NCBI RefSeq assembly: GCF_013304445.1
Contig: NZ_JAAITA010000008.1
Span: 1 to 64,000 of the forward strand
DNA from: Blautia hansenii
GTDB taxonomy: Bacteria; Bacillota; Clostridia; Lachnospirales; Lachnospiraceae
Direction of reading: 5' to 3'
DNA length: 64,000 nt
Of the stretch, positions 48,657 through 52,953 are shown one piece after another. A program made the translations under genes and the position numbers. The first letter of the stretch is position 1, and each line of letters begins with the position of its first letter. Under the pieces are notes generated by a model. That model was not told the origin of the DNA and did not search any database. It saw only the letters and a list, made by a program, of their open reading frames with translations.

Positions 48657-48887
48657 ATGTCTAACAACAATTCTTCTTCAAACAGAGCAGCTGTACCAGA
48701 AGCAAAAGGAGCCTTAAACCGTTTTAAATATGAAGTAGCCAACGAATTAGGTGTACCTCTTACAGACGGATACAACGGAAACCTGACTTCCAAACAGAAC
48801 GGTTCCGTAGGCGGTTATATGGTCAAAAAAATGATTGAAGCACAGGAAAGACAGATGAGCGGAAGCGGCTCTACACAGCAGTTCTAA
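48657..48887 (+). CDS. Alpha/beta-type small acid-soluble spore protein
   Basis: A 76-residue DNA-binding protein that coats and protects DNA in dormant spores. Family signatures are LNRFKYEVANELGVPL, which contains the germination-protease cleavage region, and NGSVGGYMVKKMIEAQER. It shows that the organism forms spores or descends from one that does. A perfect AAAGGAGG ribosome-binding site precedes it and a terminator follows. Confidence 0.96.
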   Translation: MSNNNSSSNRAAVPEAKGALNRFKYEVANELGVPLTDGYNGNLTSKQNGSVGGYMVKKMIEAQERQMSGSGSTQQF

Positions 48888-48910
48888 AAGAACCATTCCT
48901 GCTTTCACGG

Positions 48911-48945
48911 AAAAGAGGGCTTTTTACAGGTCCTCTTTTCTTTGT
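48911..48945 (+). terminator. Terminator after the spore protein gene
   Basis: AAAAGAGG pairs with CCTCTTTT across a 13-base loop, followed by CTTTG. It ends the spore protein transcript just before the toxin-antitoxin promoter. Confidence 0.75.
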
Positions 48946-48967
48946 GCAAATTTCCAATATTTTCCTC

Positions 48968-48996
48968 TGGACATTTCTTTTTCAGGGGTGTATGAT
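48968..48996 (+). promoter_or_regulatory. Promoter of the type III toxin-antitoxin locus
   Basis: TGGACA (48968-48973), 17 bases, TATGAT (48991-48996). Close to consensus. Transcription should start near 49003, about 22 bases before the first antitoxin repeat, so one promoter can serve both RNA antitoxin and toxin as in known type III loci. Confidence 0.85.
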
Positions 48997-49024
48997 AGGA
49001 AATACAAAAACATACGTTTCCCTT

Positions 49025-49116
49025 TCAAATGTCTGTTGCTTCCCGGTATGCAACGAAAAGATACCCGGGCTCAAATGTCCGTTGCTTCCTGGTATGCAAC
49101 CCAAAGATAACCAGGC
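49025..49116 (+). repeat. Tandem 46-base direct repeat, two copies
   Basis: Both copies begin TCAAATGTC and share the GTTGCTTCC, GGTATGCAAC and AAAGATA blocks; they differ at only a few positions, two of which are the compensatory pair in the pseudoknot. A truncated third copy (TCAAAT) starts at 49117. Confidence 0.92.
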
Positions 49117-49122
49117 TCAAAT
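49025..49122 (+). ncRNA. cptI: CptI/ToxI-like RNA antitoxin, two pseudoknot repeats
   Basis: Two tandem 46-base units (49025-49070 and 49071-49116) and the first six bases of a third. In each, GTTGC pairs with GCAAC to make a five-pair hairpin with a ten-base loop. In the loop, CCCGG (49042-49046) can pair with CCGGG (49065-49069) downstream, forming an H-type pseudoknot. In unit 2 these are CCTGG (49088-49092) and CCAGG (49111-49115): one pair has changed from C-G to T-A on both sides, a compensatory change supporting the fold. Known type III antitoxins are such repeats placed between promoter and toxin, cut by the toxin into units that then inhibit it. CptI units, as I recall, number about two and are about 45 bases. 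Confidence 0.85.
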
Positions 49123-49183
49123 ACAGCCCCTTCTTAAAGCATATCCAAAATCATATCAGTCCAATCAAATCTTAGGAGAATCT

Positions 49184-49756
49184 ATGACAAATCATCATTT
49201 TTATTTCATTTCAGACGAGTATTTTCAAAAATTTCACGACCGATACCTAATGCAAAACAAAGAATCCACAAAAGAAAAGAGCCACAACCGCCCCTGCTAC
49301 TGTGCTTTTCAGGACAGACAGCACCCGGAGCTCTACTGGTTCATTCCTTTTTCTTCCCAGGTGTCCAAATTCCGAAAAGTATACAAAAGCAAACTGGCCC
49401 GGTACCAGCGGTGCAATACCATTGTATTCGGCCAGGTGCTGGGACATGAAAAGGCTTTCCTGATTCAAAATATGTGTCCGGTCACCAGACGCTACATCAC
49501 CATGGAATACATGGATTCCGCCTCCCAAAACCCTGTACAGATTTCCCACAAAACCCAGCGGCAGCTTCTGAAATACGCCCGTGAAGTTATCGAACAACTT
49601 CGCCGGGGCAACACTTCTCTTATTTTTCCCGACGTACTCTCCATCGAAAAGCAGCTTCTGAAAGAAGTGCAGCAGGAAGTCCAGAAAAAAAGAACCTCTT
49701 TTACAACAAATCATAAAAGAAGTTCTCTCCCTGTTTCAAAAAAGCCTGTCTTATAA
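49184..49756 (+). CDS. cptN: Type III toxin, ToxN/AbiQ superfamily (CptN-like endoribonuclease)
   Basis: A 190-residue protein predicted to be the endoribonuclease toxin of a type III system. The start at 49184 has AGGAG six bases upstream; a longer frame from 48944 would translate the antitoxin repeats and is rejected. The family pattern is FYFISDEYFQKFHDRYLM, then NRPCYCAF, YWFIPFSSQVSKF, TIVFGQVLGHEKAFLIQNM and PVTRRYI, which I recognise from CptN/TenpN-like toxins. The last 40 residues are basic and low in complexity. It is followed by a DUF6465 gene reading toward it, with a 6-base overlap. ToxN-type loci give phage defence by abortive infection or stabilise DNA. Confidence 0.82.
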   Translation: MTNHHFYFISDEYFQKFHDRYLMQNKESTKEKSHNRPCYCAFQDRQHPELYWFIPFSSQVSKFRKVYKSKLARYQRCNTIVFGQVLGHEKAFLIQNMCPVTRRYITMEYMDSASQNPVQISHKTQRQLLKYAREVIEQLRRGNTSLIFPDVLSIEKQLLKEVQQEVQKKRTSFTTNHKRSSLPVSKKPVL

Positions 49757-50158
49757 GTCTATTTTTCTTCCACCTTCTACGAATTCACCATTTACTACAT
49801 AGTAAGCAGCGTTTTCTTCCGGTTTTACATAAATCTGTACGTCTTTAATGTCACTTTCTTTTTTACCTGTCTCTGCTACCCATGCTTTTCTCACATTTGC
49901 CTTGATGATTTCCGTATCCAGTTCTTTTCCCGCAAACTGTAAAAATACGCTTTCCTTTGCAGCAGCCGGTGTTGTCTTTGCAGTTCTCGTCTTTGTGGCA
50001 GTTGCTTTTTTTGCAGCCGCTTCCTTCTTTGCCGCCCCTCTTTTTACCGGCGCTTTCTTTGCAGCTGTTTCGATTTTTGTTTCTTCTGTCTTCGCTGGAG
50101 TCGTCTTTACAGCGGCAGCCTCTGCTGCAGCCTTTGTGGTTGTCTTTCTAACTGACAT
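49751..50158 (-). CDS. DUF6465 family protein
   Basis: A 135-residue protein. The first 75 residues are a low-complexity Ala/Lys/Thr stretch with repeated KKA/AAK patterns, like histone-tail or nucleoid-binding linkers. The C-terminal domain (SVFLQFAGKELDTEII to GEFVEGGRKIDL) is the DUF6465 part. The start at 50158 is backed by AAGGAGGAG. Function unknown; DNA binding by the basic tail is inference. Confidence 0.85.
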   Translation of the reverse strand: MSVRKTTTKAAAEAAAVKTTPAKTEETKIETAAKKAPVKRGAAKKEAAAKKATATKTRTAKTTPAAAKESVFLQFAGKELDTEIIKANVRKAWVAETGKKESDIKDVQIYVKPEENAAYYVVNGEFVEGGRKIDL

Positions 50159-50293
50159 TTCTATCTCCTCCTTTGTCACTTGCAACTTTAAATATCCTGT
50201 TTATGATACCTCTTTTGCTAAAAACTTTCAAGTTTTTTCATTGAAAAAGCAGTCAAGCCACCCTTCTACACCATAGTCTCCCATTTTTATGTT

Positions 50294-50880
50294 TTATAGT
50301 TTATTTCGAATCCCCTGCATTTTCAGGTCCAATTCCGCACTTTGATTTGCACAGTACAATAATTCCTCTGCCAACTCCCTCTGCAAGTCATCTGAAAGAT
50401 TTTTCTTATATCTGATTTTATGCTCCAGACTTGCCCAAAAATCCATAGCGATTGTCCGAAGCTGTACTTCTACTTTCATATCCCGCTTCTCATCTTTAAG
50501 AAAAATCGGCACCGAAATAATTAAATGTAAAGAACGATATCCGTTTGGTTTCGGATTTTTAATATAGTCTTTCATTTCTATAAACGTAATGTCGTCCTGC
50601 TTGAGCAAACAATCTGCCAACATATAAATATCTTCACAAAACGAGCATATGACTCTTACTCCTGCAATGTCATTGATGTTTTCCTCAATCGCATCTATAG
50701 ACAGCGGAATATTCTTATCCCTAATTTTGTCTCAACTTCCATAATCGCGCAGCGATAATACGCCATTATAGTGTCTCTTGGTTTCATATTTTTATGAATC
50801 AAATCCATAACTTCATCTGACATAAGATGTTTCATCGCAACTTGCGGTGCTCTGTTTTGTAGTATTTTCTTAATCTCCAT
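50294..50880 (-). pseudogene. Broken small alarmone synthetase (RelQ/YwaC-like)
   Basis: Two fragments of a single (p)ppGpp synthetase gene. The N-terminal piece (from the ATG at 50880) runs to AIMEVETKLGIR and then hits a stop. In another frame the remainder continues with NIPLSIDAIEENINDIAGV, DYIKNPKPNGYRSLHL and VEVQLRTIAMDFWASLEHKI. The substrate-binding segment normally between these (about 35-40 residues with the NPIE...SRIK region) is missing, so this is a deletion with frameshift, not only a frameshift. No functional synthetase can result. An intact relative is at 42030-42857. Confidence 0.85.
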
Positions 50881-50954
50881 ATTGTAATTCTCCCACTCTC
50901 TTCAAACATTTTGAAGATGTTTGAATGGATACTTATAATGATTCAAAACTCTTT

Positions 50955-51587
50955 TTAGGCACATACGTAGCAATCTCTCCCTTTTCGTTTTGCCTGATAT
51001 AATAGTTCATCTGCTTTTTCTATCAGTTCAAAGATATCTTCCCCATTATAATAAACCGCATATATTCCCATACTGACCGTCAAGCGGTCAGACACTTTCG
51101 ACTTCTCATGAGAAATATGTTTATCTGCCAGATTCTTTCTGACTCGCTCTGCCATATCCTTGGCACAGTCTGCTGTTGTTTCCTGAAGTATCACAAGCAT
51201 CTCTTCCCCGCCGTATCGTATCACCAAATCTTTTTTCCGAACAGATTCCGCCAGAATCTCTGCAAGTGCTTTAATCCCATTGTCTCCTTGCACATGTCCA
51301 TAATAATCATTGTACTGTTTGAAATAATCAATATCCATCATAAGCAGGGGCAAGGGCTTGCCCGCCAGTTTCTTTTTATTTTTTCTCATGCACCTTGTCA
51401 AATACTCACGGTTATGCAATTTGCTCATAGGGTCGGTATAGCTCTTTTTTCGCCATTTTATCAGCCAAAATACAATATCCGCTAATATCATAATTCCTAT
51501 GACGCTTATAACTGCAATGATGATTTTTCTGATTTGATGCTGTTCCGTCAAAGAATAATACTGATGAACTTTTTCCGAATATTCCAT
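50955..51587 (-). CDS. GGDEF diguanylate cyclase, C-terminal part of a split TPR-GGDEF gene
   Basis: A 210-residue product with one membrane helix (about 23-44) and a GGDEF domain. The active site reads RYGGEEM and the inhibitory I-site RKKD stands just before it, so cyclic-di-GMP synthesis with product control is expected. The ATG at 51587 is in the same frame as the TPR gene upstream, only five codons after that gene's TAA. The two together look like one receptor: external TPR sensor, membrane helix, cyclase. The start has only a weak AAGG ribosome-binding site, so expression may depend on reinitiation. Confidence 0.85.
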   Translation of the reverse strand: MEYSEKVHQYYSLTEQHQIRKIIIAVISVIGIMILADIVFWLIKWRKKSYTDPMSKLHNREYLTRCMRKNKKKLAGKPLPLLMMDIDYFKQYNDYYGHVQGDNGIKALAEILAESVRKKDLVIRYGGEEMLVILQETTADCAKDMAERVRKNLADKHISHEKSKVSDRLTVSMGIYAVYYNGEDIFELIEKADELLYQAKRKGRDCYVCA

Positions 51588-51599
51588 ATAATCCGTACC

Positions 51600-52928
51600 T
51601 TACTGCTGATTTTTGAGTTCAATCACCTCCACATATTGTTCACGGGTTTCGATATATGCATTCATATTATTTTCCTGCATATAAATATCTGCCCTATCAG
51701 AATAAGCATTTTTTTCGAGTCCGAGCCCCGCATCTGCTGAACGTGTGACAATCTGCCGATATAACTCCAATGCTTCATCAAATTTTCCCTGTTCCTTATA
51801 CAATCTTGCATAGGAATAATCTAAATACACATCCTTATTCAACGAATATTCCACATCATCTGTGTTCAGCAACTCCTTTGCAGCCTCCAGTTCATACTCT
51901 GCCTGTTCAAGATTGCCCTCATTCATATACAGCTGTGCTCTCAGATTTCCCCACAGAATTTGGATATCATCTTTCTGGGATTCCGGTATTTTAGGTATCA
52001 GTTCCTCCAATTCATCCAACACAGAAAGCACTTTTTTATGCTGTCCCAGTTCAAGATATGCGGCTCCTTCATTGACCAAAGCAAGACTGGCATCCGCCAA
52101 CAAATCATCATCCTCTCTCTTTTGGAAAATCTCCAAAGACTGCTCATAATATTCGATTGCTGTTTGATACTGTTCCAACCCATAAGCATTGTCTCCAAGC
52201 ACTGCCAAAAATTTTGACATATATTTGGAACGATTGGGAATCAGAGGAGAGGATTCCAATAACTCAAGTCCACGCCAACAATATTGTAAAGCAACAGAAT
52301 AATCCCCGTCTATCGAATATAATTGTCCAATATTTCCATACAGCCTAACCTTGCTTTCTGCTTTCAGTCCCTTCACATTTGTCACATACTCTTCTAAAAG
52401 TCTGGCACCTTGCTTGTTATTCTCTTGGTTTTCCAAAAATATGGATGCAATCCTCCAGCATAAATCAACATTATTTCTATACTCTTTTGATTGCGCCATA
52501 TAATTCAACGCTTTTTGACTGTTTTCTGCGAAATCTTCTGTTTCTCTTTCATCATATTGAAGCGATTCATTCAGTAGAACGTATGTATATATTTTGATAA
52601 AATCATCGTCTTGTTCTTGAATCCTTTCCGCTGCTGACATAAACTCTTTCGCCGCCGTTCCATAATCCCCCTGTGCATAAGCAGTTACTCCTGCCAAAAA
52701 ATCATGCTGACTGTTTTCTTCTGAAGACTGAAGATATGTTTTTATCTCATTATATTGCTTTGTTTTTATTTCTTGCCCTTCTACCATAATCTTTGCATAA
52801 GCCAAAAGAGATTCTGTTTCACTCTCATGCGGTTTCCTGATAAGCAGAACAATTACCAACAACATTACTATTCCTACTATCAAAAATCTAATTTTCTTTA
52901 CCATTCGTATCTCCTGGCAATTTTTCAT
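51600..52928 (-). CDS. Membrane-anchored TPR protein, N-terminal part of a split TPR-GGDEF gene
   Basis: A 442-residue protein. A helix at about residues 11-29 is followed by roughly eight tetratricopeptide repeats, such as ALQYCWRGLELLE and AIEYYEQSLEIFQ, predicted to face outward. It ends IELKNQQ and a TAA at 51602-51600. The same frame then continues GTDY-MEYSEKVHQYY into the helix and GGDEF domain of the next gene. Proteins with this TPR-helix-GGDEF layout are common in Clostridia, so a CAA-to-TAA change is a likely cause. Alternatively the two chains are made separately and associate. Confidence 0.8.
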   Translation of the reverse strand: MKNCQEIRMVKKIRFLIVGIVMLLVIVLLIRKPHESETESLLAYAKIMVEGQEIKTKQYNEIKTYLQSSEENSQHDFLAGVTAYAQGDYGTAAKEFMSAAERIQEQDDDFIKIYTYVLLNESLQYDERETEDFAENSQKALNYMAQSKEYRNNVDLCWRIASIFLENQENNKQGARLLEEYVTNVKGLKAESKVRLYGNIGQLYSIDGDYSVALQYCWRGLELLESSPLIPNRSKYMSKFLAVLGDNAYGLEQYQTAIEYYEQSLEIFQKREDDDLLADASLALVNEGAAYLELGQHKKVLSVLDELEELIPKIPESQKDDIQILWGNLRAQLYMNEGNLEQAEYELEAAKELLNTDDVEYSLNKDVYLDYSYARLYKEQGKFDEALELYRQIVTRSADAGLGLEKNAYSDRADIYMQENNMNAYIETREQYVEVIELKNQQ

Positions 52929-52953
52929 TCATTTTGTATACTCCCTCCATTTG

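What the first reader, a model, noticed from the sequence alone, without database searches (positions are those of the whole stretch)
48968..49756. Type III toxin-antitoxin locus of the CptIN/ToxIN kind with pseudoknot repeats
Promoter, two 46-base RNA repeats and a ToxN/AbiQ-like toxin lie in the canonical order. Both repeats can form the same H-type pseudoknot, and one pair differs by a compensatory change (C-G at 49044/49067 versus T-A at 49090/49113), which is evidence for selection on RNA structure. Type III systems are rare and can act in phage defence; this one sits between a spore protein gene and a basic DUF6465 gene.
Basis: partly seen in the sequence, partly recalled or inferred. 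Interest (0 to 1): 0.92.

Follow-up and report, generated by a model that had tools for sequence, protein, structure and literature searches.

The report
RNA-guarded toxin locus lacking its terminator
A gut bacterium carries a known kind of toxin gene thought to be kept harmless by a small folded RNA made just in front of it, but here and in its two closest sampled relatives the stop signal that normally separates the RNA from the toxin is missing and a strongly conserved stretch stands in its place, so the balance of the pair must be set some other way.

Summary
In detail: 48968-49756 has a promoter-like site, two 46-base repeats and a 190-residue ORF. The ORF is a CptN toxin (NF047359, E 7e-61; PDB 4RMO, E 5e-22). 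The repeats fit the CptI H-type pseudoknot: on 13 chosen related units all 130 pair-cells pair and 5 of 10 pairs changed on both sides. It is CptIN-type, not ToxIN, and not rare: 56 of 397 sampled family genomes exceed the cut-off.

The intrinsic terminator between antitoxin and toxin, part of the published locus definition, is present in 54 of 59 full-length loci. The window locus and two sister species lack it, and they are the only ones of the 59 shown to lack it while keeping repeats. They form one clade at one genomic site. The toxin is under purifying selection (dN/dS 0.07) and the 64-base spacer is far more conserved than synonymous sites (5/64 changes; dS 1.36). A further repeat-boundary motif lies before the ribosome-binding site, but chance gives it in 21% of shuffles. 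I file it as a terminator-less CptIN variant. Processing and toxicity are inferred.

The parts
48910..48940 (+). Intrinsic terminator of the upstream SASP gene, insulating the locus
   Evidence: 48885-48950 folds to a long hairpin with T tract, -22.1 kcal/mol; an overlapping terminator-like site at 48901-48920; homologous hairpin in L003
48968..48996 (+). Putative sigma-A promoter TGGACA-17-TATGAT
   Evidence: same hexamers in G004; middling strength among 46 related loci
49028..49073 (+). Antitoxin repeat 1 (46 nt), H-type pseudoknot: S1 GTTGC/GCAAC, S2 CCCGG/CCGGG
49074..49119 (+). Antitoxin repeat 2 (46 nt), same pseudoknot with S2 CCTGG/CCAGG
49120..49167 (+). Conserved C-rich, weakly structured 48-nt spacer between two TCA|AAT motifs, where most relatives carry the intrinsic terminator
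   Evidence: no terminator; 5 of 64 differences from G004 over 49120-49183
49165..49170 (+). Fourth copy of boundary motif TCAAAT (others start at 49025, 49071, 49117), beginning 19 nt before the start codon; possible extra toxin cut site
   Evidence: but 1028 of 5000 shuffles of the spacer contain TCAAAT; cleavage inferred from CptI_Er
49174..49180 (+). Shine-Dalgarno AGGAGAA
   Evidence: sequence; 15/15 identical in G004 over 49169-49183
49184..49756 (+). cptN-like toxin gene, 190 aa, predicted endoribonuclease
49692..49725 (-). Inverted repeat inside the toxin's C-terminal tail codons, reads as a terminator of the convergent DUF6465 gene (run of 7 T on the - strand)
   Evidence: 49656-49760 folds at -26.3 kcal/mol on the - strand
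49751..50158 (-). DUF6465 gene; its stop codon overlaps the last toxin codon

Best explanation
This is a chromosomal CptIN-type toxin-antitoxin module. One transcript starts near 49003. CptN, an RNase A-like endoribonuclease with the ToxN/Kid fold, cuts it at ..UCA|AAU.. boundaries into two 46-nt pseudoknot RNAs that bind and block the toxin (inferred from the solved CptI/CptN pair). Shown here by sequence: in this clade of three sampled species the intrinsic terminator that mostly separates antitoxin from toxin elsewhere is absent, so transcripts can run into the toxin gene, and a strongly conserved 64-base leader stands in its place. Inferred and much less sure: this leader keeps the toxin low after transcription. 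The favoured way is that free toxin also cuts at the extra UCAAAU just before the Shine-Dalgarno, trimming its own mRNA while it matures the antitoxin. I give about 0.22 to this step (lowered from 0.3 after the chance test) and about 0.15 to Rho-dependent termination; the rest is open.
For: Toxin family: NF047359 E 7.1e-61, 204.5 bits against a cut-off of 90; 4RMO E 4.6e-22. Columns of CptN_Er Ser51, Ser52, Lys56 and Tyr104 are kept in the window. Pseudoknot: 130/130 cells paired, 5 of 10 pairs with both-sided change (reached by 5 of 500 shuffles), slid controls 17-35% paired. Constraint: toxin core dN/dS 0.073 against G004 and 0.126 against G007. Terminator present in 54 of 59 full-length loci, window included; of the 5 without, L029 and L062 also show no repeats; the other three are one clade, 100/100. 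On an earlier set the same test was positive in 49 of 54 loci and 12 of 212 shuffles. Leader: 5/64 differences, against about 61 of 98 synonymous sites (Fisher p 3.5e-13) and 21/78 in promoter plus 5' leader (p 0.004). Further boundary motif before the start codon in 3 of 32 loci, exactly this clade. Toxin dS 1.36 is like recG 1.30 and rsmD 1.14, as vertical descent would give.
Against: No transcript, cleavage or toxicity data. The three terminator-less loci are related, so this is one evolutionary event, and TCAAAT turns up in 1028 of 5000 shuffles of the spacer. If the Arg of the published Ser-Ser/Thr-Arg triad is Arg53, the window has Gln there (as do 16 of 47 rows), and Asp81 and Ser85 are Leu and Lys. 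The promoter is not weaker than in relatives (10 of 12). The leader shows only weak pairing (alifold -1.1). Not all neighbours share the toxin's dS: SASP 0.40, MGS 0.54, DUF6465 0.60. In one search the number of further pair types (6) is below the shuffled mean (9.4).
Confidence: 0.86

Rival explanations
1. Ratio control is by Rho: the C-rich, G-poor, weakly structured spacer is a rut-like site that ends most transcripts before or early in the toxin gene, replacing the intrinsic hairpin.
For: Spacer 49120-49168 has 14 C and 3 G and little structure; 557 of 63952 overlapping stretches on this strand are as C-rich and G-poor; the genome has a Rho gene (PF07497, E 2e-32); the leader is conserved.
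Against: The spacer is short for a rut site. The same count on the other strand is 0, so the strand as a whole leans to C over G and the 0.9% is a weak signal. No rut motif was tested.
Confidence: 0.15
2. The system is a decaying or domesticated remnant: the toxin is weak, so loss of the terminator was tolerated.
For: Loss of a regulatory part; several matches in relatives are fragments or carry stops; the last 31-32 residues run over a neighbour's terminator; Arg53, Asp81 and Ser85 columns differ from CptN_Er.
Against: dN/dS 0.07-0.13 in the toxin core, Ser51, Ser52 and Lys56 columns kept, repeat 1 differs at 1 of 46 bases from G004 and the leader at 5 of 64 while toxin dS is above 1.
Confidence: 0.12
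3. The spacer is conserved because a 48-codon ORF (49030-49173) overlapping the antitoxin is translated and coupled to the toxin.
For: Open in the three species and ending at a TAG that overlaps the Shine-Dalgarno region.
Against: No ribosome-binding site seen before its ATG; W-G004 changed codons are 4 synonymous and 7 not.
Confidence: 0.04
4. The repeats and pseudoknot are chance, and the protein is not a type III toxin.
For: None found.
Against: Family match and covariation.
Confidence: 0.01

Closest known systems
CptIN of Eubacterium rectale, PDB 4RMO (PMC4627078)
   Same: Toxin homologous over about 155 residues (E 4.6e-22); two repeats; 45-nt units against 46; S1/S2 H-type pseudoknot with short L1 and A-rich loop 2; the unit ends in A followed by AA.
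   Different: The E. rectale antitoxin was cloned as repeats plus terminator (plasmid table), whereas the window has none; the window toxin has about 31 extra C-terminal residues; repeat sequence differs. Non-cognate CptI did not neutralise CptN in that paper, so cross-talk is unlikely.
NCBIfam NF047359 'type III toxin-antitoxin system CptIN family toxin'
   Same: Match over residues 5-158, 204.5 bits.
   Different: The protein model does not cover the RNA, the terminator or the tail.
CptIN loci L022, L023, L052 (G358, G102 of the same family; G509 of the same order)
   Same: Same TCAAATG boundary and GTTGC- or GTCGC-type S1; compensatory S1 and S2 changes.
   Different: All three have a strong hairpin with a T-rich tail before the toxin (L022).
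ToxIN / AbiQ
   Same: Same type III principle: repeats upstream of an endoribonuclease toxin.
   Different: No Pfam ToxN match; longer repeats; the E. rectale CptIN complex is a heterotetramer, not a hexamer (PMC4627078).

Membership tests
CptIN (type III toxin-antitoxin) | Toxin of the CptN protein family | tested here: met
   NF047359 204.5 bits, cut-off 90; 4RMO E 4.6e-22
CptIN (type III toxin-antitoxin) | Tandem nucleotide repeats just upstream of the toxin | tested here: met
   46 nt, 2.1 copies, 49025-49122
CptIN (type III toxin-antitoxin) | Repeat folds as an H-type pseudoknot | tested here: met
   Covariation over 13 chosen units; two pseudoknots in 200 nt versus 2/2000 shuffles. The fold itself was not measured
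CptIN (type III toxin-antitoxin) | Promoter with -35 and -10 before the repeats | tested here: inconclusive
   10 of 12 match at the right place, same hexamers in G004, but such matches are about as frequent by chance in the region
CptIN (type III toxin-antitoxin) | Rho-independent terminator between repeats and toxin (criterion in PMC5086642 section 7, and PMC8860590 passage) | tested here: not met
   No + strand terminator between repeats and toxin; the same test is positive in 54 of 59 loci
CptIN (type III toxin-antitoxin) | Conserved RNase active-site residues | tested here: inconclusive
   Ser51, Ser52, Lys56 and Tyr104 columns kept; Arg53 is Gln; Asp81 and Ser85 not kept
CptIN (type III toxin-antitoxin) | Toxic RNase that processes and is neutralised by its own repeat RNA; heterotetramer | not testable with these tools
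   Needs bench work
ToxIN / AbiQ | ToxN_toxin PF13958 match | tested here: not met
   No Pfam hit to E 0.1; none in the whole genome (its controls rang nowhere either)

The most novel reading that the evidence does not exclude
A type III system that has replaced transcription attenuation by self-processing. The toxin sets its own level by cutting its single full-length mRNA at four boundary motifs, the last just before the ribosome-binding site, so the same act that makes antitoxin also trims the toxin message. The conserved spacer would be a third, non-pseudoknot unit. Probability lowered from 0.25 after the chance test.
Probability: 0.18. Interest if true: 0.65.

Novelty: new variant of a known kind. 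Interest (0 to 1): 0.42.

Why it matters
The terminator between antitoxin and toxin is thought to keep type III antitoxin in excess (PMC5086642, PMC12373285, passages) and is used as a search criterion. A clade that lacks it while keeping toxin, pseudoknots and a conserved leader under selection suggests that the criterion would miss real systems, and offers a natural experiment on how these modules set their toxin-to-antitoxin ratio.

Tried and rejected
Rejected: ToxN/AbiQ assignment. Rejected: a known Rfam family for the repeats (none; the 6 hits are all below gathering score). Not supported: a phage- or plasmid-borne close copy. No match in 'phages'. In viral contigs 13 stretches matched a peptide pattern and none was a relative, but that scan reaches close relatives only. 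Plasmids gave 5 records, all under 60% identity, and no DNA match. PHROG 33519, of unknown function, does match (E 1.1e-18). Not supported: a weaker promoter as compensation (10 of 12, middling among 46 loci). Weak: the spacer as a decayed third repeat (170 of 2000 shuffles score as high against repeat 1 and 78 of 2000 against repeat 2). Weak: the fourth TCAAAT (1028 of 5000 shuffles). Weak: the 31-32-residue C-terminal tail as a functional part; among the loci listed only L017 (38) and a broken piece of L014 (45) have a longer one, its dN/dS is about 0.39 on few codons, and its codons overlap the DUF6465 terminator.

Limits. The strict pseudoknot scan finds none in many relatives because it was tuned to this repeat. 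The 13 units come from 7 of the 9 loci given to the pattern (L025 and L047 gave none); the 48-nt spacer pieces were left out. One search has 46 loci plus 4RMO, with partial proteins and one duplicate (L021 = L002) among them. In one search only matches held as loci were examined; of 68 distinct toxins 9 were set aside before the count (8 partial, 1 weak match, L017), and the low-repeat loci listed there include some with short or masked upstream sequence. In one search, of 48 repeat-bearing loci 32 had a usable boundary hexamer and 16 did not; L003 has two further copies. The structure prediction never finished, so no model was used. The founding 2012 survey (10.1093/nar/gks231) is not held and was not read. 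PMC4627078: abstract, passages and the results section. PMC5086642: passages and its section 7. PMC8860590 and PMC12373285: passages only. One search (type III toxin-antitoxin with Blautia) found 0 papers; searches showed no title or abstract start about a terminator-less type III locus (listings only; one search listed 15 of 1,355). That is no proof that none is in print.

Full report
Observation. The array, toxin ORF and neighbours are as described. The ATG at 49184 follows AGGAGAA.

Identity. The protein matches NF047359, the CptIN-family toxin, at 204.5 bits against a cut-off of 90, and CptN of PDB 4RMO at E 4.6e-22. Pfam (to E 0.1) and PADLOC (to E 1) gave no hit; PHROG 33519, of unknown function, did. 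In an alignment of 46 loci plus 4RMO, the columns of CptN_Er Ser51 (46 of 47 Ser), Ser52 (43 of 47), Lys56 (47 of 47) and Tyr104 (31 of 47) are kept in the window. Arg53 is Gln here (Gln in 16 of 47), and Asp81 and Ser85 are Leu and Lys. Residue roles are from PMC4627078 (results section); equating its 'Arg' with Arg53 is my inference, and Lys56 is conserved but not named there.

RNA. The 45-nt CptI_Er crystal RNA has S1, a one-base L1, S2 and a long A-rich L2, and ends in a cyclic phosphate at an A (PMC4627078). The window units have the same order, with a two-base L1. On 13 chosen units from the window, two sister species and four further loci, all 130 cells pair and 5 of 10 pairs have changes on both sides (5 of 500 shuffles reach this). 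Slid structures pair in 17-35% of cells.

The missing terminator. Published criteria ask for a Rho-independent terminator between repeats and toxin (PMC5086642 section 7; PMC8860590 passage). The window scan finds none on the + strand there. My own hairpin-plus-T test on the last 100 bases before the start codon is positive in 54 of 59 full-length loci, window included. On the earlier set it was positive in 49 of 54 loci, against 12 of 212 shuffles at the same score. The five without are L001 (window), L002 (G007), L003 (G004), L029 and L062. L002 has the same toxin and contig length as L021, Candidatus Blautia stercoravium. L029 and L062 show no repeats either. So, of the 59, only the window clade is seen to keep repeats without a terminator. 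That clade has 100/100 support and lies among terminator-bearing loci, though deeper forks are open and the root is a midpoint. As a check on the tool, L022 gives a 12-pair hairpin where expected, and L003 gives only the SASP terminator.

The leader under selection. Between window and G004 the toxin core has dS 1.36 and dN/dS 0.073. The 64 bases 49120-49183 differ at 5 positions, against about 61 of 98 synonymous sites (p 3.5e-13) and 21 of 78 bases of promoter and 5' leader (p 0.004). Repeat 1 differs at 1 of 46 and repeat 2 at 8 of 46. A coding reason is unlikely (4 synonymous, 7 non-synonymous codon changes). The spacer ends in a fourth TCAAAT, 48 bases after the third. Among 32 loci with a usable boundary hexamer only the three of this clade have such a further copy before the start codon. 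These three are one lineage, and TCAAAT occurs in 1028 of 5000 shuffles of the spacer, so the motif is a lead, not a proof.

Site and history. In the genus, 20 of 20 genomes have the SASP gene. In 3 of 20 cptIN lies between SASP and DUF6465. In 13 of 20 the two genes are neighbours with no cptIN seen. In 4 of 20 DUF6465 was not found within the stretch held. Toxin dS (1.36) is like that of recG (1.30) and rsmD (1.14), as vertical descent would give; SASP, MGS and DUF6465 are lower (0.40, 0.54, 0.60). Family-wide, 67 of 397 genomes have a match and 56 are over the cut-off.

The 3' end. The last toxin codon overlaps the DUF6465 stop. The tail codons contain an inverted repeat that reads as a DUF6465 terminator on the other strand. 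In G004 the toxin stop codon lies at the start of the second arm of that repeat. The extra tail is therefore probably incidental.

Mechanism. Shown: homology, covariation, absence of a terminator, conservation of the leader. Inferred from the solved pair: self-processing and inhibition. Inferred with low confidence: how the ratio is kept. Self-cutting at the fourth motif is my first choice (about 0.22), Rho (present) my second (about 0.15). Promoter weakening is not supported.

Verdict. The toxin belongs to the CptN family. The locus looks built to work like CptIN but fails one published locus criterion, so I call it a terminator-less variant. Phage defence should not be claimed.

Noticed in passing
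L062 (G260:C63:2695-3153): A CptN-like ORF without stops (40% identity to the window toxin) with a TATAAT-like site (by eye) and C-rich leader but no repeats found in 300 bases and no terminator in 100 bases upstream: an apparent orphan relative.
   Followed up: partly
L029 (G315): Full-length CptN relative with no repeats found upstream and an imperfect terminator hairpin.
   Followed up: partly
window 50200-52950: A RelA/SpoT-like gene in two pieces (50695-50880 and 50294-50623), a GGDEF protein and a further protein (51600-52928) lie between DUF6465 and recG in the window; in the G007 and G004 stretches none of the four was found and recG is next to DUF6465.
   Followed up: partly
window 49692-49753: A likely DUF6465 terminator lies inside the convergent toxin's coding sequence, and the last toxin codon overlaps the DUF6465 stop codon.
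   Followed up: yes
window 49030-49173: A 48-codon frame open through both repeats and the spacer in the three species, ending at the Shine-Dalgarno; no ribosome-binding site seen and no synonymous bias.
   Followed up: yes
G244, G261, G319, G320 and others: Several CptN matches are fragments and a few carry stops, suggesting decay of the family in some of these genomes.
   Followed up: no
PHROG 33519: A viral protein family of unknown function matches toxin residues 1-161 (E 1.1e-18) and could be examined as CptN-like.
   Followed up: no
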